Below are positions 16,857 through 44,211 of a stretch of 64,000 nt of DNA, one piece after another (positions within the stretch are counted from its first letter, which is position 1; every line of letters begins with the position of its first letter). Both the position numbers and the translations under genes were made by a program. This DNA is from Pseudovibrio exalbescens (GTDB lineage Bacteria; Pseudomonadota; Alphaproteobacteria; Rhizobiales; Stappiaceae): positions 992,001-1,056,000 of the forward strand of contig NZ_JAQZAJ010000001.1 in assembly GCF_028737195.1 (NCBI RefSeq). The letters are read 5' to 3'. The notes beneath the pieces were generated by a model, which saw only the letters and a program-made list of their open reading frames with translations, made no database searches and was not told the DNA's origin.

Positions 16857-16872
16857 TGGCACCATGGTTGCT
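16857..16872 (+). promoter_or_regulatory. Sigma-54 (-24/-12) promoter for the GT4 gene at 16903
   Basis: TGGCAC (16857-16862), 5 bases, TTGCT (16868-16872): a full match to the sigma-54 core consensus with exactly ten bases between the GG and the GC. The predicted transcript start is near 16883, about 20 bases before the start codon. Confidence 0.72.
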
Positions 16873-16902
16873 TGTTTTGCTTGAAATAGCAAAGAGGCAG
16901 AC

Positions 16903-18003
16903 ATGGCCGAGATCTGGCAGCTGGTCGATTCAAGTGGCATCGGCGGCATCGAAAAACATATGGTGGTGCTGACGCAAGCTTTGCGGGCGCAAGGGTATTC
17001 GGCGCGGATTGTGCTGCTAACGCCCCATGAGGACAACGCGTGGATCGCGCAAATTGAAGCAGCAGGTGTGCCCTATACGGTGCTGCCCGGAGGTATGGGC
17101 GGTTTGATGCAGGCCTTGCGCACGCAGCGGCCTGCCCTGCTTCATACCCACGGCTACAAGGCGGGCATTTTGGGCCGGGTTTCAGCTCGGCTTCTTGGCA
17201 TTTCGGTTGTTTCCACCTTTCATGCGGGCGAGACCGGCCCGTTCCCCGTTTCGCTTTATCAGCGGCTCGACGGCTGGAGCAGTTTTCTCTGCAAACGGAT
17301 CAGCGTAAGCAAGAAAATCGCGGGGAGCCTGCCGTTTTCGTCCACGGTCATCGACAATTTCATCAACCTGCCAGAGAGTGAACTCACCCGGCCCTACTCC
17401 CGCAGCGTTGCCTTTGTCGGACGCCTTTCCCATGAAAAGGGCCCGGACCTTTTTTGCGAGTTTGCTGCCACGCAAAATACGCCGGGCGTGAGCTGGCACC
17501 TTTATGGGGATGGCCCCATGCGGCCGGAGCTGGAAGCAAAATATGGGCACCTTGTTGGCTTCCACGGCATGGTCAGCGACTTGACCCCTGTTTGGCCTCA
17601 GCTTGGCTTGCTGATGATATCGTCGCGGGCAGAAGGATTGCCCCTGGTGGCGTTGGAAGCCATGGCCCACGGCATCCCTGTGCTTGGCGCGCGCGTGGGC
17701 GCGCTGCCTGAACTGATTGAAAATGGCGTGAATGGCTGGTTGTTTGATGCTGAGGATTTGCAGAAAGCCGCTGCGCAGTTTCAACAATGGGCAGAGGCCC
17801 CGGAGGCCGAGCTGGAGCGCCTGCGCCAAAACAGCCGTAGAACCATTGAGGAACGCTATTCTCCCGAGGGCAAGATGCCGGAGATTTTACAGGTCTATGA
17901 GGATGCCGGATTTTGTCTGGCGGCTAAGGCTCGGGAGGTGTCTCCCGGCATATCGAGACGAGGGTCCAGTCATCTTCCAGTTCAGGACCAAGCGCCTCGC
18001 TGA
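16903..18003 (+). CDS. Glycosyltransferase family 4 (EPS locus)
   Basis: A 366-residue GT-B fold glycosyltransferase of the GT4 type, expected to work at the cytoplasmic face of the inner membrane on a lipid-linked repeat unit. Seen are an N-terminal GIGGIEKHM loop, HTHGYKAG, VAFVGRLSHEKGPD at the start of the nucleotide-sugar-binding domain, and SSRAEGLPLVALEAMAHGIPVL with the conserved EGLP/E pair. AAAGAGGCAG precedes the ATG at 16903. The last 80 bases run into the convergent phosphatase gene. The final residues (about 343-366) look unlike the family and probably exist only because the stop codon lies late. A sigma-54 promoter sits directly upstream. Confidence 0.88.
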   Translation: MAEIWQLVDSSGIGGIEKHMVVLTQALRAQGYSARIVLLTPHEDNAWIAQIEAAGVPYTVLPGGMGGLMQALRTQRPALLHTHGYKAGILGRVSARLLGISVVSTFHAGETGPFPVSLYQRLDGWSSFLCKRISVSKKIAGSLPFSSTVIDNFINLPESELTRPYSRSVAFVGRLSHEKGPDLFCEFAATQNTPGVSWHLYGDGPMRPELEAKYGHLVGFHGMVSDLTPVWPQLGLLMISSRAEGLPLVALEAMAHGIPVLGARVGALPELIENGVNGWLFDAEDLQKAAAQFQQWAEAPEAELERLRQNSRRTIEERYSPEGKMPEILQVYEDAGFCLAAKAREVSPGISRRGSSHLPVQDQAPR

Positions 18004-19465
18004 TGCACCGCCTCAAGCTCTCTATGGGCGTTGGGCTCGCTGTTCCATCTGAAACGGTTTTCTGAAGTGCCGCTTCAAGCCATTCGGGCAGTTGATCTCC
18101 GCTGGCCAGCCCCGCAGGGTCGAGCCCATCAGTCATGAGAAAGAGACGCTCCCCGGGCTTCAGGAGATGCTCAACGCCCTCATACTCCTGATCTGCGGTA
18201 AGGCCAATCAATGGCCCTGAGATGGGAATTGGGTGCACACCTTCAGAGCTGGCAATGACCGGCTCCACGTGCCCGGCAGATGCCATGCGGATCAGGCCAT
18301 CGGGATAGCAATCAACCACTGCAAATGTGCAGAGCAGGCCAGAAAGGCCGATGTCTTCGTTCAGAATCCGGTTGACCTGCGTGATCAAGGCACCGCAACC
18401 GATCTGTGGATGCAAGGCATTGATCGTGCGCAGGATCGAGAGGAAGGCTACACTGCTGGCCTGCGCCACAATGCCATGCCCAACCATATCAACCAGAATG
18501 ATCCGCTGGCTGCCTTCCCTTTCATGAATGATGAGAGCGTCTCCCGAGCCGGTGTCGGTACTGGCCGTAAGCCGCTCCACCTTGAAGCCCTTGAGGCGAT
18601 GAACGATCTGGTGCTCTGCACGCAAATCGCGGGCTATGGCTTCGAAATGGCGCATCAATGCAGCCTGTTGGCGCAAAGTACGGCGAAAGGCGTGCCTTAC
18701 CAATCGGTTGAGCTGAACAGGTGATACAGGCTTGGTAATGACGCCCTCCACCCCGTGGTCCTCAAGCCGCATCTTGAGGTCTGGATCTCGGTCACCGGTG
18801 ATGACAAGAACCGGCGCTGGCAAGCGTTTGCTGTCCCGTTCCAAAAGGGAGATGATGCTCTCACCTGTTCCATCATCAAGGTGATAATCGGTGAGGATAA
18901 GATCGACAGGTGTTTCCGAGGCCTTTCGAAACGCCTCATCCAGAGACGTTGCGACAACGCTCTTGAAATTTGAGCCCAAGAAGGCGGCATAGGATTGAGC
19001 CAGCGTGGGATCATCATCCACGACCAGAACGGTAGGACGACGGTCCATAAGGTTGCGGCTGATGGTCAGAAGATTGGGTGTGCGGCGTTCCACATCGCCC
19101 ACCTGATAGGCGATGCCCTCCACCATATCCTTGATGAGCGCAAGTCCCCGGCCGCTCTCCATGGCCCATGGGTCTTCGCAGAGTGATGGGCTTGGACCGC
19201 TGGCAACCATGTCCGGATAAGGCGTTCCATCGTCTGCGATTGTCATGACCAGCGTTGCGCCCTGAAGGTCGATGGAAGCTTCGATTTGAACGGGCGGCTG
19301 GGCCGGATGCTTGACCAGGTTTGCGCCCCATTCTGACCAGACCAGTTGCAGGTCCTCTGAAACAGCATTTGGAATGGCCAGCGCCGACAAACGCTGCCGC
19401 AGGCGCTTGCGCAAGTTGGACACGCCGTCCAATGTGGCTGGGCTATGGGCCTTGAACAGGTTCAT
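17924..19465 (-). CDS. HATPase-REC-SpoIIE phosphatase fusion (partner-switching regulator)
   Basis: A 513-residue cytoplasmic protein with three signalling domains. Residues 1-138 form an anti-sigma-type HATPase: N box SEWGANLVKH, ADDG at 77-80 and GRGLALIKDM at 105. Residues 143-262 form a receiver domain with D150-D152, phospho-acceptor D193 in ILTDYHLDD, and K245. Residues 295-510 form a PPM/SpoIIE serine phosphatase with SGDAL (307), DMVGHG (326), MTDG (444) and EDDW (497). Such proteins dephosphorylate, and may also phosphorylate, STAS-domain antagonists. Pseudomonas HsbR is a known protein with the same modules in another order. A STAS protein is encoded at 40258 in the same EPS locus. 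The gene follows the GT2 gene by 12 bases, so the two are cotranscribed. Confidence 0.88.
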   Translation of the reverse strand: MNLFKAHSPATLDGVSNLRKRLRQRLSALAIPNAVSEDLQLVWSEWGANLVKHPAQPPVQIEASIDLQGATLVMTIADDGTPYPDMVASGPSPSLCEDPWAMESGRGLALIKDMVEGIAYQVGDVERRTPNLLTISRNLMDRRPTVLVVDDDPTLAQSYAAFLGSNFKSVVATSLDEAFRKASETPVDLILTDYHLDDGTGESIISLLERDSKRLPAPVLVITGDRDPDLKMRLEDHGVEGVITKPVSPVQLNRLVRHAFRRTLRQQAALMRHFEAIARDLRAEHQIVHRLKGFKVERLTASTDTGSGDALIIHEREGSQRIILVDMVGHGIVAQASSVAFLSILRTINALHPQIGCGALITQVNRILNEDIGLSGLLCTFAVVDCYPDGLIRMASAGHVEPVIASSEGVHPIPISGPLIGLTADQEYEGVEHLLKPGERLFLMTDGLDPAGLASGDQLPEWLEAALQKTVSDGTASPTPIESLRRCISEALGPELEDDWTLVSICRETPPEP

Positions 19466-19477
19466 TGAAGCCTCCCC

Positions 19478-20407
19478 TCAAGCGCTTTTGGAAACAAGCA
19501 AAGCCTTGGCGTCCGACAAAACGGCATGTAGCGTGCGCTTGTCCGGGTTCAGCATGGCGGCTTTGATATGGGTTCTCAAGGCAGCTGACGGGTTGCCTTC
19601 TTCCAGCTCCTTTTCAGCTGTGGCCACTAAAATGTTGGCGCGAGCCTTTTTCAAGGCCGCCTGCACGGCGGGGGATGCGTTGTCTTCGTAGCGTGCGATG
19701 ATTGTGTTCATGGCATCAATGCGTGCCTGCCGTTTTTGGGTCTCGCTTCCGGGACGCATCAGGTAGTCCATGGTCACCGTTCCACTGATGCCTACGGCGC
19801 CCTTTTCCGCCAGCTTCAACCAAAGGTCCCAATCTTCAGCGGATGGTAACGCTGTTGCAAATCCATTTGCGTATCGCAAAGCTTCTGTTTTTGCGACGAC
19901 TGAAGAGGTGCCGACGATGTTGGTCGACAGCAGCGCAGCCAGAGGGTCCTGAAGCAGTTGATAGTGTTCTTCAGGGCGCGCATTCAAATGGCCCTGCCAG
20001 AATTCGAAGCAGGTACCAAGGTCCTCCCCAGCCATGCCCACGTGGCGATAATCAGTGAAACTGAACAGTGCATTGGGCTGTTCAAAGTGCCAGCGCATCT
20101 GCTCTGCGAGCTTGCCGGGATACCAGATGTCGTCTGCATCCAAAAAGGCAACGTGGCTGTACCGGGCCTTGGAGATGGCAAGATTCCGCGCACTTGCAGG
20201 GCCTTTCGCTGGCCCTTGAAGGGCGACGAGCTCATCGCAGTCTACGGCAAGCCGGGAGAGCCACTCGCCTGTGCCATCTGTTGAACCGTCGTCGACCACG
20301 ATCAATTCAAGGGGCTGAAATGCCTGCTCGATAACACTGCGGATGGCTTCCTTCAGATACGGCAGACAATCTCTTGTCGGGATCACAACCGAACACCCCG
20401 GCTCCAT
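19478..20407 (-). CDS. Glycosyltransferase family 2 (EPS locus)
   Basis: A 309-residue GT-A fold enzyme. It has the N-terminal CSVVIPTRDCLPYLKEAIRS, the UDP-binding VVDDGSTDGT at about 37-46 and the metal-binding FLDADD near residue 95. It probably adds one sugar to the lipid-linked repeat unit on the cytoplasmic side. AGGAG lies 7 bases before the ATG at 20407. The C-terminal 80 residues are helical and charged (KKARANILVATAEKELEEG). It is first in a two-gene operon with the SpoIIE-type regulator, an unusual pairing of an EPS enzyme with a phosphatase, and is divergent from the main EPS operon. Confidence 0.88.
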   Translation of the reverse strand: MEPGCSVVIPTRDCLPYLKEAIRSVIEQAFQPLELIVVDDGSTDGTGEWLSRLAVDCDELVALQGPAKGPASARNLAISKARYSHVAFLDADDIWYPGKLAEQMRWHFEQPNALFSFTDYRHVGMAGEDLGTCFEFWQGHLNARPEEHYQLLQDPLAALLSTNIVGTSSVVAKTEALRYANGFATALPSAEDWDLWLKLAEKGAVGISGTVTMDYLMRPGSETQKRQARIDAMNTIIARYEDNASPAVQAALKKARANILVATAEKELEEGNPSAALRTHIKAAMLNPDKRTLHAVLSDAKALLVSKSA

Positions 20408-20448
20408 GGCACACTCCTGATTTTTTATCGAGCTCGAAAGCGATGGGT

Positions 20449-20464
20449 TGGCATCGAGCTTGCT
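20449..20464 (+). promoter_or_regulatory. Sigma-54 (-24/-12) promoter of the main EPS operon
   Basis: TTGGCAT (20448-20454), 5 bases, TTGCT (20460-20464): one mismatch to the TGGCAC-N5-TTGCW consensus and ten bases between GG and GC. The predicted start of transcription is near 20475, about 95 bases before the GTG at 20571. Confidence 0.68.
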
Positions 20465-20481
20465 GCTTCAAGGCAAGCTTT

Positions 20482-20497
20482 GCAGGTTCTGAGCCAA
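20482..20497 (-). promoter_or_regulatory. Possible weak sigma-54 promoter for the GT2/phosphatase operon
   Basis: On the minus strand the sequence reads TTGGCTC-N5-CTGC, with two mismatches to consensus but correct GG-N10-GC spacing. It would start a leftward transcript near 20471, facing the rightward promoter at 20449. The match is only suggestive. Confidence 0.35.
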
Positions 20498-20570
20498 TTC
20501 TAATCCCCGACATTACAGGGAGTTCGAGGCCAAGACCGCGCGAGATAACAACAAAAAAGGACGCGCCCTC

Positions 20571-21755
20571 GTGAAAACCATTGGATATGTGCTGGCTGAT
20601 TTTCCGGTTTTTTCCGAGACATTTGTTGGAAACGAAATCAGGGCCATGCAGGAACAGGGGCACCGGGTTGTGCCCATCGTGCTGCGCCGTACCGATGGCC
20701 CAGCGCAATCCGCCGACCTGAAACTGAAAGAGATTGCCCACTACCTGCCGGAGCACAGTGATTTTTCAGCGCTGAAAGCGCTGCCGTCCTTGTCCAGCTC
20801 CTTCCTTTCCGCGTTGCAATTCTGCCGCCAACAAACCGGCTTGCCGGTCTACTCGCTGCTGGGCAATGCTATGAAGATTGCAAGTATTGCCAGACAGGAA
20901 GGGATTGAGCACTTTCATGCGCATTTCGCCGGACCAGCTGCAGCCCATGCCATCGTCGCCGCGCGGTTGATGCGGGTAAGCTGCTCGTTCGTATGCCATG
21001 GACACGACGTCTACTCAGAAGCAATTGATCTGCCAGAGAAGCTTGAAGCTGCGGACTTTGTGGTCGCTGTTTGCAACGACATGGCAGAAGACCTGCACAC
21101 CTTGTGCCCGGAAGCGGAAATCTCCATCGTCCCTTGTGGGATAGATCCGACCCGTTTCCGCCCCCGCCTGAACGGCGGCGACAATGGCCGACTGCTTTTC
21201 ATCGGGCGATTGGTGGAGCAGAAAGGCATCGATGACCTTTTTACCGCGCTCCATGAAATGGGCGATGCCATGCCCCCCGTCGACATTGTGGGAGACGGCC
21301 CTTTGAAGCAAAGGCTCCAAGCGCAGGCGATCAAGTTTGAGCTGGAGAAGAAAGGGCTCGCGTTTTTGGGGCCCAAACCTGCGGAGTGGCTGACGGAAAA
21401 CGGACCTCACTACAAAGCTCTGGTCGCGCCCTTCAAGGTCGCTCCGGACAAATCCCGCGATTCCGGACCCCTTGTTGCCAAGGAAGCCATGGCCATGGCG
21501 CTTCCGGTGATCACCACTGACTTCATGGGCATGAAAGAGACGATTACTCCCGAGTGCGGCTACAAAGTGCCCCCCGGCAATCCCCAGGCATTGCAGGCAG
21601 CGCTGGAAGCGTTTCTCGCGCTTTCTCCAGAAAACCAAGAGGAAATGGGGGCGGCGGGGCGGCGCCGGGTTTGTGAGACCTTCACATTGCAAAACCAAGC
21701 CAGAGCGCTTTCCAACCTCGTGGAAGCGGCCATACCGCACCGAAAGGCCGCCTGA
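20571..21755 (+). CDS. Glycosyltransferase family 4, WcaL/AmsK-like (EPS locus)
   Basis: A 394-residue GT4 enzyme. The opening ADFPVFSETFVGNEI is typical of the WcaL/AmsK/ExoL-like exopolysaccharide glycosyltransferases. The middle has HFHAHFAGPAAAHA, CHGHDVY and PCGIDPTRF. The donor-binding half begins at LLFIGRLVEQKGIDDL and contains the acidic KEAMAMALPVITTD. The start is a GTG at 20571 with AAAAAAGGA about 10 bases upstream. It opens the long plus-strand EPS operon, driven by the sigma-54-type promoter at 20449, and is followed after 3 bases by the flippase gene. Confidence 0.88.
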   Translation: MKTIGYVLADFPVFSETFVGNEIRAMQEQGHRVVPIVLRRTDGPAQSADLKLKEIAHYLPEHSDFSALKALPSLSSSFLSALQFCRQQTGLPVYSLLGNAMKIASIARQEGIEHFHAHFAGPAAAHAIVAARLMRVSCSFVCHGHDVYSEAIDLPEKLEAADFVVAVCNDMAEDLHTLCPEAEISIVPCGIDPTRFRPRLNGGDNGRLLFIGRLVEQKGIDDLFTALHEMGDAMPPVDIVGDGPLKQRLQAQAIKFELEKKGLAFLGPKPAEWLTENGPHYKALVAPFKVAPDKSRDSGPLVAKEAMAMALPVITTDFMGMKETITPECGYKVPPGNPQALQAALEAFLALSPENQEEMGAAGRRRVCETFTLQNQARALSNLVEAAIPHRKAA

Positions 21756-21758
21756 CGC

Positions 21759-23174
21759 ATGAACCTGAAGAGCTTGCTCCATGCCTGGCCCTATGTGGCC
21801 AGCATTGTTCTGACCAAGGGCCTTGCGGTTATTACCATTCCCGTGCTGACCCGATACATGGCAGCGGAGGATGTGGGCTATCTGGATGTAGCCGCGTCCT
21901 TGCTGGAGTTCATTGGTCTGGTGTTTGCCATGGGGCTGGCGGACACGCTGTTTCGGTTCTCCGGCACCCAGCGCACGGAAGCTGAACGCAACCGAGAAGC
22001 TGCTGTGATTACCGGCAGCGCGTTGGTGCTGGCACTGTTCTTTGGCGTTCTGGTGCAGCTGTTCATGCCGCTGGTGATTGGCGCATGGGATCTGCCCATC
22101 AACGAATGGGCGCTGCGCTTGAGCATTTTGGGCGCCACTCTTGGCGGGCTCATCGAGCTGCCGCTGGCGTGGCTGCGGCTTGGTAACAAGCCCAAGCTCT
22201 TCCTGATTTTCACGGCCTCTCGCGGTGTGTTGCAAGCGCTGACCATGGTGGTCTTGCTGATGAACGGGTATGGCATTGACGCCATCCTGATCGCAAACGG
22301 CAGCATTGACGTTGTACTGGCGATGAGCTTGCTCGCGCTCCAAGTTTCGCGCACCGGCATTGGTTTCTCCCGCCAAGGTTTTGAGCGCACGGTGAAGTTC
22401 GGCTTGCCCTTGGTTGGAGGCGCGCTGGCCATGTTCGCGCTTGGCTCCTGCGACCGCTGGTTCCTCGTGACGGCCATTTCGCCGGAAACACTGGCTCACT
22501 ATTCAATTGCCGTTAAACTGTCGCTGGCCGCGCCGCTTCTGCTACAGCCCTTTGGCTTGTGGTGGTATGCAAAACGCATTGCGGTTCTGGAAGAAAGCAA
22601 CGGTCTTGCCCACTCCGCTGACGTGGTGCTGCTTGGCTACTGGGTGCTTGTGGTTGGGGCGCTGGGGACCGCCCTTGCAGCGCCGATTTTCATTGCGTGG
22701 CTGTTGCCCGCCTCATACCTGCCTGCCATTGCTTATGTGCCGTGGCTTGTACTGTGCTTTTCGCTGAATGAGCTCTGCTCTTTGCTCAATGTTGGAACGT
22801 ACCGCGCCCAGCATGGCTTTTATGTGCTCGGGGTGAATGCTGTTGGCGGGGCTGCAGCCGTTCTCGGCTATTGGCTGCTTGCGCCGTCCCATGGTGTTGC
22901 CGGTGCGATTTTTGCAACGCTGGTGGGCCATGGCCTGCGGCTTCTGCTGTTTCTAGGGTTGTTTCACCGGAAGGCCCCAATCCCCTATCGTCTGCCTCAG
23001 ATGGCCGTGTTTACGGGGCTTGCCGTCCTCGCGGTGGCGGGCCAGCCGCTCAGCGTTTCTTTGCTCTGGCAGTTTGCCTATGCCATCGCGGCGGGTCTGA
23101 TCATGCTGGCGGCAGGGTATGGCGTCATGTCCCGTCTGAAATCCCGTGGTGCATTGGCGCCGGTGGAGGCCTGA
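21759..23174 (+). CDS. Wzx-type polysaccharide flippase
   Basis: A 471-residue protein with about 12-14 membrane segments of the polysaccharide transporter (MOP) superfamily. It begins AWPYVASIVLTKGLAVITIPVLTRYM, the usual first two helices of Wzx proteins, and has RFSGTQRTEAERNREAA in the first cytoplasmic loop. Its role would be to flip undecaprenyl-linked repeat units across the inner membrane. The start codon is 3 bases after the preceding GT4 stop and the next gene begins 3 bases after its own stop, so translation is probably coupled. Confidence 0.87.
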   Translation: MNLKSLLHAWPYVASIVLTKGLAVITIPVLTRYMAAEDVGYLDVAASLLEFIGLVFAMGLADTLFRFSGTQRTEAERNREAAVITGSALVLALFFGVLVQLFMPLVIGAWDLPINEWALRLSILGATLGGLIELPLAWLRLGNKPKLFLIFTASRGVLQALTMVVLLMNGYGIDAILIANGSIDVVLAMSLLALQVSRTGIGFSRQGFERTVKFGLPLVGGALAMFALGSCDRWFLVTAISPETLAHYSIAVKLSLAAPLLLQPFGLWWYAKRIAVLEESNGLAHSADVVLLGYWVLVVGALGTALAAPIFIAWLLPASYLPAIAYVPWLVLCFSLNELCSLLNVGTYRAQHGFYVLGVNAVGGAAAVLGYWLLAPSHGVAGAIFATLVGHGLRLLLFLGLFHRKAPIPYRLPQMAVFTGLAVLAVAGQPLSVSLLWQFAYAIAAGLIMLAAGYGVMSRLKSRGALAPVEA

Positions 23175-23177
23175 GCC

Positions 23178-24689: not shown

Positions 24690-25426
24690 CAGCAGTGAAC
24701 AAACTCAAAGGGTGGATCAAGCGTCAGGACACCCCAACCACCAAGTGGCTTTACAAGACCTTGAAGCAGGTACGCAGTGCGTCATTTCCGGTGATCCCTG
24801 GTTTTCACGGCGCGCTCTACACCATCAGCCGCGGGATCAAAGGGGTTTTCTTGAACCTTGTGCGCGTGTGTTGGACCACGCCCCTCTTTCAAAGCCAGCT
24901 CGAAAGACCTTGCAAACAGCTCTACATCTTTGGTGGCATGCCGTTGGTGATCGGCCCGCTGAAGATGGCGTTTGGTGATGATGTGCGCCTTTCCGGCCAA
25001 ACCACCTTCACTGGCCGGTCCGACGCTGAAAGCACGCCGGAACTCAAGGTGGGCAGCCACATAGATATCGGCTGGCAGTGCACTTTCGCGGTGGGAACGC
25101 GCATTGAACTTCAAGACAATGTGCGCCTTTCAGAACGGTGCTTCCTTGCTGGATATCCCGGCCACCCCTTGGATCCTGCGGACCGCGCTGCAGGCCTTCC
25201 TGCGACCCCTGATCAGGTGGGTGACATCATTGTGGAAGAAGGTGCCTGGCTGTGCTTTGGCACCATCGTGCTGGCCGGGGTACGCATCGGCGCGGGCTCC
25301 GTGGTCGCAGCAGGAAGCGTGGTGACCAAAGACATTCCTCCGGGCGTCTTGGCCGCAGGGTCCCCAGCCCGTGTGATCCGTCCGATCCACGCTGATGTGG
25401 AGGTGGCAAAATCCCATGCCCTCTGA
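24686..25426 (+). CDS. Hexapeptide-repeat (LbH) acyltransferase
   Basis: A 246-residue protein with a left-handed beta-helix in its C-terminal half: repeated I/V-G-x-x hexads such as IDIGWQCTFAVGTRIEL, VEEGAWLCFGTIVLAGVRIGAGSVVAAGSVV and DIPPGVLAAGSPARVI. The last is the typical end of WbbJ/CysE-like O-acetyltransferases. It probably decorates the EPS repeat unit with acetyl or a similar group. The N-terminal 80 residues are basic and hydrophobic and may bind the membrane. The gene overlaps the preceding polymerase gene by 4 bases and the following glycosyltransferase gene by 11. Confidence 0.85.
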   Translation: MTAVNKLKGWIKRQDTPTTKWLYKTLKQVRSASFPVIPGFHGALYTISRGIKGVFLNLVRVCWTTPLFQSQLERPCKQLYIFGGMPLVIGPLKMAFGDDVRLSGQTTFTGRSDAESTPELKVGSHIDIGWQCTFAVGTRIELQDNVRLSERCFLAGYPGHPLDPADRAAGLPATPDQVGDIIVEEGAWLCFGTIVLAGVRIGAGSVVAAGSVVTKDIPPGVLAAGSPARVIRPIHADVEVAKSHAL

Positions 25427-26549: not shown

Positions 26550-26562
26550 GCGAGAGGTAGTC

Positions 26563-28959: not shown

Positions 28960-28997
28960 AACATAATATTAAACGCGGTTTATTGAGGCAAAAATCA

Positions 28998-29861: not shown

Positions 29862-29978
29862 GGTAACAGGACTGCCTCGGAAAAATGCTCATAAAAATTG
29901 AGCAATATCTGCGACAAACTATTGAGAAAACAAAAAGAAAGCAGCAGACGCAAGCGCCCATCCTCACGTAGAGTATTC

Positions 29979-33197: not shown

Positions 33198-36100
33198 TTA
33201 AGAAGAGGACGCAACCTCCGTCAATTCGAATTTAACGTAGGGTAATTTCTTGAGTTCTGAAACTGCAGTTCCTGCTGACTGTATAAATTCACTAGCCAAT
33301 TCTAAAAGAACTTCCTGATCCGGTTCATTTTCTACTTCGGATGCAATTTTTGCTGCCTCCAATGCGCCGAATTGGGACATGAGCCCTGAAAATCTATGGG
33401 CGGTCTTTCGTAGCTGCTCAATATCGCCAGTCTCAATGCACATGTTGAACTGGTCAAAAAGTTCTTCCGAGTTGGTAAAGAATGTACTCAGCAGGCTGGC
33501 AAAAACATCCTCACCGACAGCCTCGACGATATCATTCAAGGTCTGCTGATCAATGGTCGATGATTTCTTGCCGCTATTGGCCTCGCCAGTCCGGGTCTTC
33601 GAGGATTCGTAGCTTTTTTCTTCTTGCTTTTGGGCATGTACCATTAGAATTCCTTCCCCGGCGGGGGCCGCCAGATCGTCATCTTCAAGCAGAGCCTCCA
33701 GACGGCTGAGTTCCTTTTTCCAGCCATCGTCGGGCAGCGCAAAAATATCCGGTTGGACTTCCTCGTTTTCTGCGGTCGGCGGCAGAATGTTGGCGGGCAG
33801 CTCTGCCTTCTCGACATACTTTTCACTGTCTTGGTCTTCCCGCTTGGCAACGCTTTGACGCACCACTGCCAATACGCTGTCCAGCTCCTCCCAGCTTATG
33901 GGCTTGGTGAGGTAACCTGTCAGACCAGCTGCAAAAGCAGCTTCCTTGTCTGCTGCCATCGCCTGTGCTGACAGTGCATAGATTGGCGTTGCAGACATCG
34001 GCAGACCCATCTCCCGGATTTTCCGGGTCGCGGTCATGCCATCCATGTTGGGCATCTGCATGTCCATCAAAATAAGGTCAAAATCACGGCGTCCGACCGC
34101 CTCCAGCGCCTCTACTCCGTCCTGCGCGGTGGTTACAATGTGCCCGCGTTTTTCCAATGCGGTTTTGATGACCAGCTGACTTGCGGGCGTATCTTCGGCG
34201 ACCAATATCTTGAGGCGCACGGGCTCGGCAGGTTGTTCAAGGTCAAGCGTGCCCTGAATGCCCTTCCACTCAGGGTCATTTTCCGCCGCCTCACCTTCCA
34301 TGGCTTCCAGCTCGATTTCGAACCAGAACTGGGAGCCGAAACCGACAGTGCTCTCGAAGCCGATCTCACCTTTCATCAGGTTGACAAGTCGCTTGCAGAT
34401 GACGAGCCCAAGTCCGGCACCGGGCTCTGTCAGATCTCTATCCTGCCGCTTGCGCTCAAATGGCAAGAACAGCTGCTTTTGAACATCCAATGCAATCCCG
34501 GAACCGGTATCGTGGACCGTAAACCGCAAACGGCGCTTGCCTTCATGGATGCCAATGCCTTCAACAGCTAGGGTCACATGCCCTTGTTTGGTAAACTTGG
34601 CTGCGTTGCTCATGAAGTGGGTGAGCACCTGACCAATTCTCCCGGCATCTCCCTTGTAGATGCGCGGCAGATCAGCTGGCAGATTCAGGTCAACTTCCAC
34701 ATCCTTGTCGCCAACCGCATCTTCAGCAAGGCGCAAGCTCTTGTTCACGAGGCGCTGTAAATCGAACGGGCGATAGTTGAGCTTGATTTTGCCAGAGTCC
34801 AGATCGGAGAAGTCGATCGTGTCTGATATGAGACCCAACAGACGCTGACCAGACTGCTGTATTTCGGCGGTAAATCTGCGTTGATCAGATTTCAAGTCGC
34901 TGTCCGAAAGCAGGGAAGCGAACCCCATGATGGCGTTGAGGGGCGTGCGGATCTCATGGGAGATCATGGAGAGGAACTCGGATTTGGCACGGCTGGCCGT
35001 TTGGGCTTTCTCCGCCAGATCCTTAAGCTGTACGGCTTGCTTTTCCAAACGTTCATTGGCGCTTTGGATTTCCAGCGCGCGGCTCTTAGCCTCCGTAATG
35101 TCCGTGAAGACAGAAACCATCCCGCCAGTGCTTGTGCGTTGCGTTGAGAGTTGCATCCAGCGGCCATTGGCCGTGGGCTCCTGATGGCGGTAGTGAACCT
35201 GATCGGATGCCAAAGCGCTGCGGCGTTTTTTCATGCGCTCACTGATGAAAGCCTCCAAATCGTCGGGCTTTGGATATACGCGTGCTTCAACGGCAAGGCG
35301 GATCGTTTCTTCATAGGTCATGCCGCGGCGAATACGCTCGGCCTTGTCTCCGAACAGCTCGCGGAAGCGACGATTGCACAAGATAAGCCTGTCCGTCCGG
35401 TCGAACAGGACAAGGCACTCGTCCAGACTGTTCACCGCATCATCCAATATGCTGCGGGCGTGCTCGGCTTCCTTGGCCATTCTGGAGAGCTGATCTGCCT
35501 GTTGGCTCACGTGTTCTCGGGCGTGTTCCAGTTCGGCTTCCCGGCGTTTCATCTCTGTGATATCGGTGCGGATGCTAACGATCCCGCCATCTTCGGTGTG
35601 CTTGTCTGAAATCCGCACCCAGCGCCCATCGCTCAGCTTCATTTCATAGGTAGCGACCGGCTTGCGCCGCGACTGCTGACGATGCTCCAGCCACTGGGCC
35701 AAGCCCTGGCCTTGCAGGTCAAACTCGTTGTTTTCCGCACCGTATTTCAGGACATCCATGTAGGGGACACCTGCGCGCAACGCAGCTGCGGAGATCTTGT
35801 AGATATGGGTGAACTTCTGGTTCCAGAGCACAACACGGTCTTGTGCATCACATAACAGGAAGCCCTCGTTGATGTTCTCAACAGCATCGGAAAGGCGTTG
35901 ACGGGCGGAGCTGGCCTTCTCCTGCGCCTCAAGGGTTTTCCGAAGAAGCTTGTTGGTGTGCATCTCATAGTACACCAAGAAGCCCATGAGGCCCATGAGC
36001 GAGGCGATAGCCAATCCGCTGAACCAGACGAGTTTTTGCAGCATTTCGCTCATCTCGTTCTTGACGCGCAGACGCTGCTCGATATCCCAGCGAAGGCTTG

Positions 36101-36578
36101 CCAGCGTCACGTCCCGCAAGTTCTGAGGATAGGGGTTGAAGCGCTCTCTGATCTGCAGATAGGTGGCCAGATCGTCGGCCTGCAATTGCCGTACTGCGCC
36201 TTCAACGTCTATCAGTGTTTTTTCAAGACTTCCAACGACGCCCTGAAGACCCATTATTGACGTGATCTCCTGCTTCAGACGCCCGGTCTTGTAAAGCTCC
36301 ATGCGGCTCCAAAGCAGGTCGAAGCGCAGCAGCATGTCGGCCTGACTTATGCTGTCATTGCCCAACATGAAACCATCAAGGGCGTTCAAAAAACGAGCCA
36401 AATCCAGCTCGGTCTGAGCTGCGGTCCAGACGGCATTTTCCGTGACGGTGCGCGTGAGTTTCTGCTCCACTTGCTCATACTTGAAGGCCGTGTAGCCGGT
36501 TAGCCCTACCAGGCCGCAGAAGAGCAGAAACAAACTGATTACGACGATGCGCCCGCGCGCGGAAAAATGCTTCATCAT
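33198..36578 (-). CDS. Hybrid sensor histidine kinase with PAS, receiver and Hpt domains
   Basis: An 1126-residue inner-membrane kinase. It has a membrane segment at 11-31, a helical periplasmic sensor (32-184), a second membrane segment at 185-204, two PAS-like domains (about 226-345 and 376-500), a coiled coil, a HisKA domain with H541 in SMISHEIRTPLNAIMGF, an HATPase (NAAKF near 658, GSGIAL, GAGLGLVICKRLV), a receiver domain with D839 and K892, a linker rich in acidic residues, and an Hpt domain with H1061 in KTAHRFSGLMSQFGALE. Phosphate can pass H-D-H within one chain and then to a response regulator, most likely the NtrC-type protein next door. The start overlaps the stop of the SUOX-fold gene by 4 bases, which suggests that the two products work together in the periplasm. 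Confidence 0.92.
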   Translation of the reverse strand: MMKHFSARGRIVVISLFLLFCGLVGLTGYTAFKYEQVEQKLTRTVTENAVWTAAQTELDLARFLNALDGFMLGNDSISQADMLLRFDLLWSRMELYKTGRLKQEITSIMGLQGVVGSLEKTLIDVEGAVRQLQADDLATYLQIRERFNPYPQNLRDVTLASLRWDIEQRLRVKNEMSEMLQKLVWFSGLAIASLMGLMGFLVYYEMHTNKLLRKTLEAQEKASSARQRLSDAVENINEGFLLCDAQDRVVLWNQKFTHIYKISAAALRAGVPYMDVLKYGAENNEFDLQGQGLAQWLEHRQQSRRKPVATYEMKLSDGRWVRISDKHTEDGGIVSIRTDITEMKRREAELEHAREHVSQQADQLSRMAKEAEHARSILDDAVNSLDECLVLFDRTDRLILCNRRFRELFGDKAERIRRGMTYEETIRLAVEARVYPKPDDLEAFISERMKKRRSALASDQVHYRHQEPTANGRWMQLSTQRTSTGGMVSVFTDITEAKSRALEIQSANERLEKQAVQLKDLAEKAQTASRAKSEFLSMISHEIRTPLNAIMGFASLLSDSDLKSDQRRFTAEIQQSGQRLLGLISDTIDFSDLDSGKIKLNYRPFDLQRLVNKSLRLAEDAVGDKDVEVDLNLPADLPRIYKGDAGRIGQVLTHFMSNAAKFTKQGHVTLAVEGIGIHEGKRRLRFTVHDTGSGIALDVQKQLFLPFERKRQDRDLTEPGAGLGLVICKRLVNLMKGEIGFESTVGFGSQFWFEIELEAMEGEAAENDPEWKGIQGTLDLEQPAEPVRLKILVAEDTPASQLVIKTALEKRGHIVTTAQDGVEALEAVGRRDFDLILMDMQMPNMDGMTATRKIREMGLPMSATPIYALSAQAMAADKEAAFAAGLTGYLTKPISWEELDSVLAVVRQSVAKREDQDSEKYVEKAELPANILPPTAENEEVQPDIFALPDDGWKKELSRLEALLEDDDLAAPAGEGILMVHAQKQEEKSYESSKTRTGEANSGKKSSTIDQQTLNDIVEAVGEDVFASLLSTFFTNSEELFDQFNMCIETGDIEQLRKTAHRFSGLMSQFGALEAAKIASEVENEPDQEVLLELASEFIQSAGTAVSELKKLPYVKFELTEVASSS

Positions 36579-37087
36579 TTGACGTGGAGCTCCCTAACCT
36601 GCCAGATCCACTTGTGGTCCTCGGAGACTAAAGGGTGCTGATCTTTGGGGTAAACGACCCAGAGCGGGCCCTTGTCGCGAACGCTTAACGGCTTGCCGTT
36701 CATTTCCGCTGCGAGAATAACCGGATACTCTTTGAGTTCGGAAACATCCAACTCAACCCGGTAATCGTTGAGCGCCACTGCTTCCACCTTGGTGCCATTG
36801 GCCCCAACGCGTTCCAGGATATCGCTGATGCGCGTGCCATCGAACCGCTGTCTGCCGTCCGTCCAGGTGGTGTGGGTCAGAACGGTTTGAGAGCCGAGGG
36901 ACGCCAGTGCGTCACGGTCGAACTTGGCAACCGCCCCATCGGTTGTCTTGTCAATGTCGCCGCTCACCACAAGGATGACCGGACCGTTGGGCGCGCTCAG
37001 CTCTTCCGCGTCGCTGGAGAGCGCGAACAATGAGAGTGCGCAGGCAGCCACAGCACCAAAAACAATGTTCTTTTGCAGAGGAAGCAT
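36575..37087 (-). CDS. Periplasmic SUOX-fold (molybdopterin-binding-like) protein, cofactor cysteine absent
   Basis: A 170-residue protein with a Sec signal peptide (about 1-27, ending SDA). The mature part resembles a trimmed sulfite-oxidase-type fold (PF00174): FDGTRISDILERVG, ALNDYRVELDVSEL, LAAEMNGKPLSVRDKGPLWVVYP and WIWQVRELHV. The mature sequence contains no cysteine, so it lacks the thiolate that binds molybdenum in true sulfite oxidases. It is far smaller than an enzyme of that family. It is therefore probably a ligand-binding or sensing domain. It is coupled by a 4-base overlap to the hybrid kinase gene and lies 15 bases after the GT2-phosphoglycosyltransferase gene. Confidence 0.75.
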   Translation of the reverse strand: MLPLQKNIVFGAVAACALSLFALSSDAEELSAPNGPVILVVSGDIDKTTDGAVAKFDRDALASLGSQTVLTHTTWTDGRQRFDGTRISDILERVGANGTKVEAVALNDYRVELDVSELKEYPVILAAEMNGKPLSVRDKGPLWVVYPKDQHPLVSEDHKWIWQVRELHVK

Positions 37088-37102
37088 CGGCGGTTTCTCC
37101 TT

Positions 37103-38917
37103 TTACTGACCGCGACCCGTCACCATCACAACGAATGTTCGCAGGATGATGGAGAGGTCTGTCTTGAACCATTCCCAAGGGGTAACAAGCTGCATGGCGT
37201 AGGCGTGATCGTGCATGACCTTGGAGCGCACATCTTCAACATCCTCATCGTAGCCCTGCTCGACTTGAGCAAGGCCCGTAATGCCGGGGCGCAAACCATA
37301 GGTACGCTCGATGTAAAACGGGATTTGATCCTCAAGCCGTTCAAAGAACACAGGACGTTCCGGACGCGGGCCCACAACGGACATTTCACCTCTCAGCACA
37401 TTGAGGCACTGGGGCAGCTCGTCCAACCGAGACTTGCGCAGGAAACGGCCGATCCGTGTGACGCGAGGATCTCCTTTTGTTGCCCACTGCGCGCCGTGCT
37501 TTTCGGCGTCTGTGCGCATACTGCGGAACTTGGTCAGCAAGAACAGGTTGGTGCGGTCTGGCAGGCGCTCGCCAACACGGTACTGGCGATAGAAGATCGG
37601 GCCCGGGGAATCCAACTTGATGATTATCGCCAGAGGAACAAACAGGATCGCCATCACAACAAACGCTGCCACAGCGAGGGTGACGTCCATCACCCGTTTT
37701 CCCATTCTGGCAAGTGGATGAATGAAGTCAGGCACGCCAGTGTTGTCCGCCGCGCGGCGCCAAGGTTTGCGGGCTCCAAAAACATACTGACAGCAGCCGA
37801 GAAACGCCGCCACCTGACCGCCCAGCGCATAACCAACAGCAGAAAAGGGGCGCAGCAGTTTGGGAAGATCGCCGTCTGTTACCGCCTCATAGATATTGAC
37901 CGCCATCGCGACAAGAACGCCCGCCATTACCAGCTGAGCCAGCAGCGCGCCTTGCAGCGCAAGCACGGCACAGGAGAGCAGGAACGCAACCATCAGGATC
38001 GGCGTGAAGGCCCGCAGCCCCTTGCCTGACAGATAGATAAAAGCCAAGGCCGGTTTCTTGAGATCAGCAAGGCGCCAAAGCCAAATGGCCTGCTGCAGGT
38101 TTCCCGCGCCAATGCGCAGCCGGCGGCGCAAATCGGTCTCGCGGCTGGCGGCCTCTGTTTCTGTGGCAACTAGCGATAGATCGTAGATGGCGCGATAGCC
38201 ATCCTCGACGATCTGCATGGGGATGAGCACATCGTCGTTGATCGTGGATGGAGGAATGGCCCGCCAGGCGGAGCGGCGGATGGCATAAAATGCACCGTGA
38301 GCGCCGAAAGGAGCGGCCACGGAGGCCTCCGCCTCCTTCAACCAGCGTTGATAGGACCAGTAGGCATGTTCTCCGCTATCTTCGGTCTCCAGTTCATAGG
38401 TGGCGCAAACCACGCCGACATCGGGATCTGCAAACTCGTCCGCGACGCGCCAGAGCGCATCCGGTTCAACAACTGCAGAAACATCCGTCAGGACAATGAT
38501 GTCAGCCGTGCTTTCAGAAATGGCCTGATTGAGAACGGCGACTTTGCCGCGGTTGTAGTGCCATTCGCTGAGTGAGAGCGCAGCGGTTGAGAGGCCCTCG
38601 TCCTGAAGCTCTTTCAAGGTTCTCTTGGCAATGGGATATGTCTCATCGGTGCAGCCATCAAAAATGATCGAAACCTTGAGCTGGCCTGCTGGATAGTCCA
38701 GTTGAGCGCAGTTGCGCAGTTTTGCCGCAATGCCCGGCGCCTCGTTGTAAGCCGGGATGATCACCTCGATGCTTGGCGGCTGAGTGCGATCTACCTTCTG
38801 AAACTTTGGCTGGCGTGGTTCTGAACGTGACGCCATTTGCCGAAGAACAGCCGGATAAACCAGACCGTGATAGGCCATCAAAGCGCCGGAACCGAGGGCA
38901 ACGAGTTCTGCGGTCAA
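37103..38917 (-). CDS. GT2-phosphoglycosyltransferase fusion (EPS initiating enzyme)
   Basis: A 604-residue inner-membrane protein joining two enzymes. Residues about 50-290 are a GT2 glycosyltransferase (VIIPAYNEAPGIA, DGCTDETY, VLTDVSAVVEPDAL, then a QxxRW-like RRLRIGAGNLQQAIW). Membrane helices at about 300-385 follow. Residues about 405-604 are a polyprenyl-phosphate sugar phosphotransferase (PF02397): KRVMDVTLAV, FYRQYRVGE, LLTKFRSMRTDAEK, KSRLDELPQCLNVLRGEMSVVGPRPERP and LRPGITGLAQV. The second part would place the first sugar-phosphate on undecaprenyl phosphate. The frame opens at a TTG at 38968, but the TTG at 38917 has AAGGGG 7 bases upstream and overlaps the preceding stop by 4 bases, so it was chosen. 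Confidence 0.88.
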   Translation of the reverse strand: MTAELVALGSGALMAYHGLVYPAVLRQMASRSEPRQPKFQKVDRTQPPSIEVIIPAYNEAPGIAAKLRNCAQLDYPAGQLKVSIIFDGCTDETYPIAKRTLKELQDEGLSTAALSLSEWHYNRGKVAVLNQAISESTADIIVLTDVSAVVEPDALWRVADEFADPDVGVVCATYELETEDSGEHAYWSYQRWLKEAEASVAAPFGAHGAFYAIRRSAWRAIPPSTINDDVLIPMQIVEDGYRAIYDLSLVATETEAASRETDLRRRLRIGAGNLQQAIWLWRLADLKKPALAFIYLSGKGLRAFTPILMVAFLLSCAVLALQGALLAQLVMAGVLVAMAVNIYEAVTDGDLPKLLRPFSAVGYALGGQVAAFLGCCQYVFGARKPWRRAADNTGVPDFIHPLARMGKRVMDVTLAVAAFVVMAILFVPLAIIIKLDSPGPIFYRQYRVGERLPDRTNLFLLTKFRSMRTDAEKHGAQWATKGDPRVTRIGRFLRKSRLDELPQCLNVLRGEMSVVGPRPERPVFFERLEDQIPFYIERTYGLRPGITGLAQVEQGYDEDVEDVRSKVMHDHAYAMQLVTPWEWFKTDLSIILRTFVVMVTGRGQ

Positions 38918-39990
38918 AGCGGTACCCCTTGAGCTAGAGAGTCGTAAGCACTCAGCGTGTCGCGCCAATCAAAACGGCGGCGCACGAATTTTACAGGTGC
39001 ATCGGTTTGTGGCGCTTCTGACTGGATCAGGAGCGCTGTGGCGAGCGCACTTTCATCTTCCGGCGGCACAACCTGACTGGCCTCTGGACATACTGCATCC
39101 GGCAGGGCTCCTACTCGGGTCGCGACGACAGGAACGTTTGCGGCCTGAGCCTCAATAACTGTGAGCGGCAGCCCTTCCTCTCGGGATGGCACCGCCAACA
39201 CATCAAAAGCGGGCATCAAGGCATTCACTTCCGCCACATTGCCAAGGAAAGTCACGCGGTGATTGATCCCCAGCGCAGCGGCTTGCGCTTCAAGCGCTTC
39301 GCGCTCGGTGCCATCACCAGCAAGGGCCAGATGGAAGCTCTCGGGAAGATGGCTGATGGCATCAAGAAGCACATCAAACCCCTTGACCCTTTCAAGACGT
39401 CCGACGCCTCCAATGAGACGCGACCGCTCTGGCAAACCGAACTTTTCTCTGGCCGCACGTTTGTCCCCGGGACAGAAAACAGTCATGTCCACCCCATTTG
39501 GGATGACGTAGACCTTCTTCTTACCCGTGAGACGCTCTACTTCTTTCGCGACCGGGAGGCTGACAGCGGTAACGATGGGCCGAAGCAGCTGGAAAGCTGC
39601 CTTGGTCAAGAACAGTTGGCGGCCATCGCGTAGGTGCCAGGCATCATGCTCGACCTGCATGATGTGGGGCACGCGCACCAGACGGGCGGCCAGGCCCCCG
39701 TAAAGTAACGGACCGATATGATGTGTGAAAACTGCCGCCGGTTTGTCCCGCTTCAAGGCTCGGCGAAGTTTCCCGACAACCGACAAATCCCAACCGTTGT
39801 TCTTGTCGAAGTAAACAGGCTCAACACCGTAGCGCTGCGCAAGTGCAAGGCCCGCAGTGCCCGCTTCTGGCGCTCCTTCCAAGACGTAAACACGGGTGTG
39901 CGCAGGATTGGCTGCACATAAACGCATCACCAGCAGCTCGATGCCGCCGGGGGCAAGTTTTTGAATGATATGGATCGCTCTTATTGTCAT
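38914..39990 (-). CDS. Glycosyltransferase family 4 (EPS locus)
   Basis: A 358-residue GT-B enzyme. Seen are an N-terminal IIQKLAPGGIELLVMRL, HHIGPLLYGGLAARL, QVEHDAWHL, IPNGVDMTVF, GGVGRLERVKGFDVLL and PSREEGLPLTVIEAQAANVPVVAT. It would extend the lipid-linked repeat unit in the cytoplasm. It is the first gene of the five-gene minus-strand operon that ends with the NtrC-type regulator. A sigma-54-type promoter with an excellent match lies about 50 bases before its ATG. The following initiating-enzyme gene starts within its stop codon. Confidence 0.88.
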   Translation of the reverse strand: MTIRAIHIIQKLAPGGIELLVMRLCAANPAHTRVYVLEGAPEAGTAGLALAQRYGVEPVYFDKNNGWDLSVVGKLRRALKRDKPAAVFTHHIGPLLYGGLAARLVRVPHIMQVEHDAWHLRDGRQLFLTKAAFQLLRPIVTAVSLPVAKEVERLTGKKKVYVIPNGVDMTVFCPGDKRAAREKFGLPERSRLIGGVGRLERVKGFDVLLDAISHLPESFHLALAGDGTEREALEAQAAALGINHRVTFLGNVAEVNALMPAFDVLAVPSREEGLPLTVIEAQAANVPVVATRVGALPDAVCPEASQVVPPEDESALATALLIQSEAPQTDAPVKFVRRRFDWRDTLSAYDSLAQGVPL

Positions 39991-40037
39991 TCGTTGGGAT
40001 CCTGAGATGCGCTAGGACGCGGTTCCCCAACTACTTC

Positions 40038-40053
40038 GCAACGCTCGTGCCAA
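40038..40053 (-). promoter_or_regulatory. Sigma-54 (-24/-12) promoter of the minus-strand EPS/regulator operon
   Basis: On the minus strand it reads TTGGCAC, GAGCG, TTGC: a full match to the sigma-54 core with GG and GC exactly ten bases apart. The predicted transcript start is near 40027, 37 bases before the GT4 start codon at 39990. It lies back to back with the plus-strand element at 40175. Confidence 0.72.
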
Positions 40054-40174
40054 TCGAAACCCCCTCGAAAATGTGCGGGATTTGCGCCGCGCTATAGATC
40101 TTCGCTATTTGCAAAGAATGCCTCTAAAAATTGCCAGTGTCATAGCTAACGCCCCGAATTCCTGCGGTTTTCCC

Positions 40175-40190
40175 GGGCATGGGAATTGCT
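40175..40190 (+). promoter_or_regulatory. Sigma-54 (-24/-12) promoter of the STAS/exporter operon
   Basis: GGGCAT (40175-40180), 5 bases, TTGCT (40186-40190). The GG-N10-GC spacing is exact, with two mismatches in the -24 hexamer (GGGCAT for TGGCAC). The predicted start is near 40201, about 57 bases before the ATG at 40258. Confidence 0.58.
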
Positions 40191-44188: not shown

Positions 44189-44211
44189 CGACAGGCAGGA
44201 GGACAGCTCCC

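What the first reader, a model, noticed from the sequence alone, without database searches (positions are those of the whole stretch)
16857..40190. An exopolysaccharide locus with repeated sigma-54 promoters and its own sigma-54 activator
Four sigma-54-type elements with exact GG-N10-GC spacing sit directly before EPS transcription units: 16857 (+), 20449 (+), 40038 (-) and 40175 (+). Two of them match the TGGCAC-N5-TTGC core completely. An NtrC-type response regulator with an intact GAFTGA loop is encoded inside the locus. All-sigma-54 control of Wzx/Wzy-type EPS synthesis is unusual for alphaproteobacteria as far as I know. It would make EPS a switch-like, ATP-dependent output of one phosphorelay.
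Basis: partly seen in the sequence, partly recalled or inferred. Interest (0 to 1): 0.75.

Follow-up and report, generated by a model that had tools for sequence, protein, structure and literature searches.

The report
Syp-like sigma-54 exopolysaccharide control locus
An alphaproteobacterium of the Pseudovibrio group carries an exopolysaccharide gene cluster with sigma-54-type promoter sequences before its gene groups and its own phosphorelay activator, laid out much like the symbiosis-biofilm (syp) switch of Vibrio fischeri, and part of its predicted enhancer DNA lies inside a gene.

Summary
In detail: all four sigma-54 sites are at the stated coordinates. By motif counts they are not above chance in the window (104 found, 103.76 in shuffles). 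Position and conservation make them convincing: in 11 loci, a GG-N10-GC site with at most one mismatch lies upstream of 25 of 35 unit-first genes (GT2 left out) against 6 of 119 others.

The activator is LuxO/SypG-type (575.8 bits to LuxO, next family 391.3, LuxO cut-off 800 not reached). LuxO-type palindromes lie between two divergent promoters and inside a glycosyltransferase gene; the in-gene one is the top window of 2427 in a motif-blind synonymous-conservation scan, though both have two mismatches to the published motif here. A SypE-like kinase-REC-PP2C protein and a STAS protein complete a syp-type module, and a weak fifth site faces the second.

Best reading: a syp-like, sigma-54-driven, probably self-amplifying EPS switch, a new variant of a known kind (Vibrio syp/scv; Elstera and Terasakiella already in print). 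Binding, promoter and enhancer function are inferred; nothing was measured.

The parts
16857..16871 (+). P1: sigma-54 -24/-12 element TGGCACCATGGTTGC before GT4_A (ATG 16903)
   Evidence: site with at most 1 mismatch before GT4_A in 4 of 9 loci
16903..18003 (+). GT4_A, group 1 glycosyltransferase
   Evidence: Pfam
17924..19465 (-). SypE-like protein: HATPase_c_2 (RsbW-type kinase) - REC - SpoIIE/PP2C
   Evidence: Pfam; sequence; alignment of 4
19478..20407 (-). GT2, family 2 glycosyltransferase; carries an enhancer-like element in its coding sequence
   Evidence: Pfam
19855..19897 (.). in-gene UAS-like block (palindrome 19865-19881 ATTTGCGTATCGCAAAG plus flanking TTGC half-sites), 590 bp from the P2 -12 element
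   Evidence: UAS pairs with at most 1 mismatch inside GT2 in 3 of 3 loci of one other genus; none inside GT2 in G250 (up to 3 mismatches) or G363 (up to 1)
20449..20463 (+). P2: sigma-54 element TGGCATCGAGCTTGC before GT4_B
   Evidence: 7 of 8 loci
20482..20496 (-). P2': candidate fifth sigma-54 element TGGCTCAGAACCTGC before GT2-SypE, facing P2 across an 18-bp gap
   Evidence: 4 of 4 Pseudovibrio-group loci; not at that place in G250 or G507; GT2 0 of 9 at 1 mismatch or less
20571..31493 (+). P2 unit: GT4_B, Wzx (21759), Wzy_C (23178), hexapeptide transferase (24686), GT4_C (25395), GH123-like protein (26563), unknown (28983), Wzz/GNVR (29898)
   Evidence: Pfam; fold
31529..33136 (-). SypG/LuxO-type sigma-54 response regulator with GAFTGA
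33198..36578 (-). hybrid histidine kinase PAS-HisKA-HATPase-REC-Hpt
36575..37087 (-). Oxidored_molyb domain protein
37103..38968 (-). GT2-like domain fused to a bacterial sugar transferase (initiating enzyme)
38914..39990 (-). GT4_D, first gene of the P3 unit that ends with the regulator
40038..40052 (-). P3: sigma-54 element TGGCACGAGCGTTGC
   Evidence: 7 of 8 loci
40100..40116 (.). UAS-like palindrome CTTCGCTATTTGCAAAG between P3 and P4 (2 mismatches to TTGCAWWWTGCAA)
   Evidence: spacing to both promoters constant within 2 bp in 4 genomes
40175..40189 (+). P4: sigma-54 element GGGCATGGGAATTGC before STAS
   Evidence: 7 of 10 loci have a site with at most 1 mismatch, this one has 2
40258..40545 (+). 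STAS-domain protein, SypA-like
40542..45897 (+). rest of P4 unit: 125-aa protein, SLBB/Poly_export (40916-44188), 233-aa and 312-aa proteins

Best explanation
This is a syp-like exopolysaccharide locus. A signal reaches the hybrid kinase (two hydrophobic stretches suggest a membrane anchor), and phosphate passes through its REC and Hpt domains to the LuxO/SypG-type regulator. The regulator binds TTGC-type palindromes, one between P3 and P4 and a cluster inside the GT2 gene. It loops to sigma-54 polymerase held at P1-P4 and fires the biosynthesis, export and STAS units together. Because P3 leads into the unit holding the kinase and the regulator, the switch is predicted to amplify itself. The SypE-like kinase/phosphatase would set the phosphorylation of the STAS protein and so gate EPS after transcription, as SypE and SypA do in V. 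fischeri. Shown here: the anatomy, conserved -24/-12 elements, and conserved palindromes at near-constant spacing. Inferred: unit limits, phosphotransfer, DNA binding, promoter activity and the SypE-STAS step.
For: Domains. One RpoN match. The locus is syntenic in 3 of 15 same-genus genomes; two have the contig lengths of P. exalbescens and P. flavus. In the aligned promoters P2, P3 and P4 keep GG-N10-GC in 4 of 4 and P1 in 3 of 4.

UAS-to-promoter spacing is 70/70/72/72 bp (P3) and 81/81/81/82 bp (P4). The in-gene UAS is the top synonymous-conservation window of 2427 overlapping windows: 6 of 8 wobble sites kept, background 419 of 4390.

Outside the family: G250, G507 and G929 have sigma-54 sites before GT4_B, GT4_D and STAS, with 2, 3 and 2 UAS between the latter two. 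UAS with at most 1 mismatch: 17 in 8 loci against 2.03 simulated. Unit-first genes 25 of 35, others 6 of 119.

The activator's best of 120 NCBIfam families is LuxO, and the published LuxO UAS is TTGCAWWWTGCAA, overlapping SypG sites (PMC10162802, passages). I drew the palindrome from the alignment before reading that.
Against: In the window's own locus no UAS reaches 1 mismatch; both have 2. No convincing UAS for P1 here. P1 has no site in G019, G507, G363, G955 and G929 (GT4_A 4 of 9). G363 keeps the genes, but among unit starts only STAS has a site and UAS; one more 1-mismatch site overlaps the Wzz start. G1010 has SypE and STAS but no match to the regulator or EPS genes and no UAS in 36 kb. 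Six of 119 other genes have a site, one of them really P2 in a locus without GT4_B there. The loci are related, so counts are not independent. A second LuxO-type activator exists in the genome. No expression data.
Confidence: 0.82

Rival explanations
1. The sites are chance matches and EPS is driven by ordinary promoters.
For: Site counts in the window equal shuffles. Of the 20 exact TGGCACN5TTGC sites that one search listed (a capped list), 17 overlap an ORF of the mechanical call, P1 among them.
Against: Conservation at orthologous unit starts across genera and families with diverged flanks; near-constant UAS spacing.
Confidence: 0.04
2. The locus is sigma-54 controlled, but mainly by another activator of this genome (for example the second LuxO-type regulator on contig 22), with the encoded one acting elsewhere.
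For: 7 strong Sigma54_activat matches in the genome; the contig-22 one is also LuxO-type (492.6 bits) with a similar C-terminal helix by eye, so both might read TTGC palindromes.
Against: A relative of the encoded regulator lies in the locus in G016, G018, G019, G250, G363, G507, G929, G955 and G193, though not in G1010; in the window it ends the P3 unit. The contig-22 regulator has no match to the EPS proteins used as queries within its 20-kb stretch.
Confidence: 0.1
3. It is an XrtA/PEP-CTERM type EPS cluster under PrsK-PrsR-RpoN control.
For: The Wzz-like protein best matches TIGR03007 (202.9 bits); the sugar transferase matches TIGR03013 (214.6 bits) second to TIGR03025 (240.0); PrsR is a Fis-type response regulator tied to RpoN (PMC9850573, passages).
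Against: All below cut-off; the regulator scores 380.0 to TIGR02915 (cut-off 502.6) against 575.8 to LuxO. STAS and SypE-like proteins are not part of that system (recalled).
Confidence: 0.03
4. The conserved block at 20482-20496 is not a promoter but another element (leader, operator); GT2-SypE is transcribed otherwise.
For: Its -24 reads TGGCTY and its -12 is poor; it is not found at that place in G250 (only a 3-mismatch match at another distance) or G507; GT2 has 0 of 9 sites at 1 mismatch or less.
Against: GG-N10-GC kept in 4 of 4 Pseudovibrio-group loci with 18-20 bp between the facing GC steps.
Confidence: 0.45

Closest known systems
Vibrio fischeri syp locus (SypA/E/F/G, RscS)
   Same: STAS protein; serine kinase-REC-PP2C protein; hybrid kinase; sigma-54 response regulator; syp operons with sigma-54 promoters activated by SypG (PMC3610818 and PMC10162802, passages; that there are four syp promoters, and the Hpt of SypF and RscS, are recalled)
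   Different: Alphaproteobacterial; strands and gene order differ (V. fischeri order recalled); regulator and kinase sit in a sigma-54 unit; enhancer-like block inside a glycosyltransferase gene; candidate fifth promoter facing P2; GH123-like gene in the main unit. No gene-by-gene comparison with V. fischeri was made.
scv locus of Vibrio parahaemolyticus and relatives (PMC8941931)
   Same: Syp-like locus under a sigma-54-dependent regulator (ScvE); alphaproteobacterial members Elstera and Terasakiella are mentioned
   Different: Pseudovibrio has no mention in the main text; the passages I read do not treat promoters or enhancers of the alphaproteobacterial members
LuxO quorum-sensing activator
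   Same: Best NCBIfam and PDB sequence match of the regulator; same UAS class
   Different: Below the LuxO equivalog cut-off; sits in an EPS locus; Hpt fused in the kinase rather than a separate LuxU (LuxU recalled)
R. capsulatus partner-switching system (PMC3999984, search listing only)
   Same: Partner-switching proteins in an alphaproteobacterium
   Different: Separate proteins and not in an EPS locus (recalled)

Membership tests
syp/scv-type EPS locus | Single-domain STAS protein (SypA) | tested here: met
   PF01740 E 2.9e-14; best PDB match an anti-sigma-B factor antagonist
syp/scv-type EPS locus | Kinase-REC-PP2C protein (SypE) | tested here: met
   HATPase_c_2 9-122, REC 146-256, SpoIIE 317-507
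syp/scv-type EPS locus | Hybrid sensor kinase with Hpt (SypF/RscS) | tested here: met
   HisKA, HATPase_c, REC, Hpt in one protein
syp/scv-type EPS locus | Sigma-54 response regulator SypG | tested here: met
   as a LuxO/SypG-type protein; no SypG-named model was among the families listed
syp/scv-type EPS locus | Sigma-54 promoters at operon starts with a SypG/LuxO-class UAS | tested here: met
   weakest in the window itself, where both UAS have 2 mismatches and P1 has no clear UAS
syp/scv-type EPS locus | Orthology of the biosynthetic genes with V. fischeri sypB-sypR | not tested
syp/scv-type EPS locus | SypE controls STAS phosphorylation; biofilm phenotype | not testable with these tools
   needs genetics
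LuxO (NF041946 equivalog) | Score above curated cut-off 800 | tested here: not met
   575.8 bits, best of 120 families
NtrC (TIGR01818) | Score above curated cut-off 558.6 | tested here: not met
   373.3 bits; another activator of this genome scores 721.2
PrsR / XrtA EPS (TIGR02915, TIGR03007) | Scores above cut-offs 502.6 and 278.85 | tested here: not met
   380.0 and 202.9 bits
Sigma-54 promoter | GG-N10-GC with -24/-12 consensus | tested here: met
   P2' only with 2-3 mismatches
Sigma-54 promoter | RpoN- and activator-dependent transcript start about 12 bases downstream | not testable with these tools
   no expression data

The most novel reading that the evidence does not exclude
In Pseudovibrio the second and fifth sigma-54 elements (20449-20463 + and 20482-20496 -) form an interlocked face-to-face pair with predicted starts about 5 bp apart (20475 and 20470). 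Open complexes could then not form on both at once, so at any moment a cell would fire either the Wzx/Wzy synthesis unit or the GT2-SypE unit, both from the enhancer inside the GT2 gene that one of them transcribes. Reading through GT2 would disturb the enhancer that drives P2, giving a built-in competition between making polymer and resetting its STAS gate.
Probability: 0.3. Interest if true: 0.7.

Novelty: new variant of a known kind. Interest (0 to 1): 0.55.

Why it matters
It suggests that the sigma-54/SypG switch known from the squid symbiont's biofilm exists, with its enhancer code and its kinase-phosphatase-STAS arm, in Pseudovibrio-group and some other alphaproteobacteria. The same activator type and enhancer motif also occur near a different, synthase-type EPS operon in a related genus. 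LuxO/SypG-type regulators might then be EPS regulators at root, with Vibrio quorum sensing one branch, which a tree and mutants could test. The in-gene enhancer would be a clear case of synonymous codon choice held by regulation.

Tried and rejected
Motif counting within the window: no excess, so dropped as evidence. A UAS for P1: in the window none with up to 2 mismatches nearby; G016 has one with 2 mismatches 395 bp upstream and G250 one with 2 mismatches 65 bp upstream, too weak to use. TTGCAWWWTGCAA in the own genome: 23 places with one mismatch against 4 control places, none in this window; I looked at 15 of the 23 and saw no clear EPS target, by ORFs and sigma-54 sites only. Naming relatives: the first genome-contig scan with P0002 gave nothing; the allowed second one with alignment A1 named two Pseudovibrio species.

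Papers, listings only: face-to-face sigma-54 promoters (2 papers, none on the point by title or abstract start); in-gene enhancers (12 of 42 listed; PMC4591121 reports conserved intragenic sigma-54 binding in E. coli, which is near but not the same thing). PrsR/XrtA, NtrC and LuxO-proper filings were tested and not met.

SypE-like proteins in wider draws: 3 of 385 class genomes, 3 of 398 phylum genomes, 5 of 397 order genomes, own genome included each time; queries and thresholds differed and the draws overlap. One search left out matches above E 1e-10, places better matched by another query, matches beginning after residue 60 and those too near an end; GT2 (0 of 9) is in neither total, and with it the unit-first count is 25 of 44. 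One search dropped one gene of 24 (no orthologue in two genomes), and its GT4_B row for G016 is a paralogue, so that gene's windows are unreliable.
Full report
What was checked. The encoded activator has receiver, Sigma54_activat and HTH_8 domains and a GAFTGA loop, and the genome has one RpoN match. Counting alone does not support the sites: 104 matches with up to two mismatches against 103.76 in shuffles. Genome-wide there are 39 exact TGGCAYN5TTGC sites against 16 of the backwards pattern, and 3 of the 39 fall between 16857 and 40190, all before unit starts. In the three syntenic relatives the counts are 28 (control 10), 38 (16) and 33 (10), with 3, 3 and 2 in the locus (positions compared).

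Anatomy. From left to right: GT4_A (16903, +); a SypE-like HATPase-REC-PP2C protein (17924-19465, -) with GT2 (19478-20407, -); a long forward unit GT4_B-Wzx-Wzy-hexapeptide transferase-GT4_C-GH123-like-unknown-Wzz (20571-31493); a reverse unit GT4_D-sugar transferase-molybdopterin domain-hybrid kinase-regulator (39990 down to 31529); and a forward unit STAS-125 aa-SLBB export-233 aa-312 aa (40258-45897). Unit limits are inferred from strand and gaps. Each of the five units has a GG-N10-GC element before it: P1 16857, P2 20449, P2' 20482-20496 (-), P3 40038-40052 (-), P4 40175. P2' and P4 have two mismatches.

The regulator. Its best NCBIfam match is LuxO with 575.8 bits; the next is 391.3. 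It stays under the LuxO cut-off of 800, so I call it LuxO/SypG-type, not LuxO. The best solved relative is LuxO 5ep0, 430 bits; the first that is not LuxO has 294.1. As a control, the six other strong activators of the genome were scanned: three pass the cut-off of another family (NtrC, FlbD, NtrX), and one, on contig 22, is also LuxO-type (492.6 bits, under the cut-off).

Footprints. Of 87 family genomes, 50 have a relative of the regulator at E 1e-100 or less. I fetched about 20 kb to either side for 20 of them (one cut short by its contig); only G016, G018 and G019 carry the locus, near-complete: G019 lacks the molybdopterin gene, and G016 lacks that and GT4_B at its place. G018 and G019 have the contig lengths of Pseudovibrio exalbescens DSM 16456 and P. 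flavus RKSG542. Aligning the intergenic regions of these four shows P2, P3 and P4 as islands of conservation in diverged DNA. P1 is found in 3 of 4 (not G019); MAFFT misaligned it in G016, where it lies 44 bp before GT4_A. P2' keeps GG-N10-GC in 4 of 4 with 2-3 mismatches.

Enhancers. The alignment showed a conserved palindrome like CTTTGCAA-N-TTGCAAAG between P3 and P4, at 70/70/72/72 and 81/81/81/82 bp. The same motif lies inside the GT2 gene, 582-590 bp from P2, in 4 of 4. I then read that the LuxO UAS of Vibrionaceae is TTGCAWWWTGCAA and overlaps SypG sites (PMC10162802, passages); the palindrome fits. A scan that did not look for motifs, synonymous conservation over 23 genes of the four genomes, put codons 172-184 of GT2 first among 2427 overlapping windows (6 of 8 wobble positions kept; background 419 of 4390), which is this element. 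In the window's own sequence both palindromes have two mismatches to the published UAS, so none reaches one mismatch.

Other families. SypE-like searches brought in more loci. G250: sigma-54 sites before GT4_A, GT4_B, GT4_D, STAS and the kinase, two UAS between STAS and GT4_D; no P2' at its place (one 3-mismatch minus-strand match lies farther off) and no UAS inside GT2. G507: P2, P3, P4, three UAS between P3 and P4, two inside GT2; no P1, no P2'. I then fetched G955, G929 and G1010 as a test, without writing the predictions down first. G929 shows P2, P3, P4, two UAS between the latter and two inside GT2; G955 shows P2 and two UAS inside GT2 and is cut off by its contig at the regulator; G1010 has SypE and STAS but no match to the regulator or the EPS genes and no UAS. 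G507, G929 and G955 are one genus by the tool's labels, so they do not count as three independent cases. G193 has a site before STAS, and two UAS before a site at 17825. G363 has a site and an exact UAS before STAS, a 1-mismatch site over the Wzz start, and none at its other unit starts. Over 11 loci, sites with at most one mismatch precede 25 of 35 unit-first genes (GT4_A 4/9, GT4_B 7/8, GT4_D 7/8, STAS 7/10) and 6 of 119 others; GT2 is 0 of 9 and in neither total. UAS with one mismatch or less: 17 in 8 loci, 2.03 expected from Markov simulations; the window's own locus has 0.

How it probably works. Phosphate goes from the hybrid kinase to the regulator; the regulator sits on the palindromes and loops to sigma-54 polymerase at P1-P4, with self-amplification through P3. 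The SypE-STAS arm is inferred from V. fischeri, where SypE promotes phosphorylation of SypA and inhibits biofilm downstream of syp transcription (PMC3610818, passages).

Comparison. The nearest known systems are Vibrio syp and scv. Syp-like loci in Alphaproteobacteria are in print for Elstera and Terasakiella (PMC8941931, passages). I found no paper on this locus in Pseudovibrio, within limits: Pseudovibrio, SypG, SypE, symbiosis polysaccharide; 30 of 50 papers listed, none holding Pseudovibrio; with exopolysaccharide, biofilm, LuxO; 15 of 187 listed, none holding it; with RpoN, exopolysaccharide, biofilm formation; 15 of 391 listed, one holding it once, a Janthinobacterium genome; 4 papers. 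Only listings were seen in these. So the kind is known; the host group, the in-gene enhancer and the possible facing promoter pair are the parts I take as new.

Noticed in passing
window 26563-28959: A 798-aa protein without a Pfam or NCBIfam match is modelled (mean pLDDT 79.4) with similarity to GH123 beta-N-acetylgalactosaminidases (Foldseek E 2.4e-16, TM 0.40 by query and 0.58 by target); D600-E601 are invariant in 6 homologues. It may point to an N-acetylhexosamine in the polymer and an encoded trimming enzyme.
   Followed up: partly
L102, L103 (G065); L104-L109 (G046, G034, G051): In another genus of the family a LuxO/SypG-type regulator and a hybrid kinase lie by a PilZ-HlyD/GT2/MBOAT operon (Pfam for G065 only). 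A sigma-54 site with at most 1 mismatch lies at the like position in 4 of 4 (gene start beside it seen in G065 and G034 only); a UAS with at most 1 mismatch near it in 2 of 4.
   Followed up: partly
L078-L101 (12 genomes of two other genera): A relative of the regulator stands near EamA and malate synthase G, as here, but no match to the EPS proteins of this locus was found within the fetched flanks (one flank only 6 kb). The regulator may have lost, or pre-date, its polysaccharide cluster.
   Followed up: partly
window 36575-37087: A molybdopterin-domain protein (PF00174) lies in the P3 unit here and in G018, and near the G193 module (41% identity), but was not found in G016 or G019.
   Followed up: no
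own genome, contig 22 about 316057 (L004, L169): A second LuxO-type sigma-54 activator (492.6 bits), with no match to the EPS proteins used as queries in its 20-kb stretch.
   Followed up: partly
own genome: TTGCAWWWTGCAA with one mismatch occurs at 23 places against 4 for the backwards control, two of them 167 bp apart on contig 22 (4674 and 4841).
   Followed up: partly
L173 about 5063 (G955) and L175 about 11960 (G929): Exact UAS also lie inside the GH123-like gene in two loci of another family; none with up to 2 mismatches lies in that gene in the window or its three syntenic relatives.
   Followed up: no
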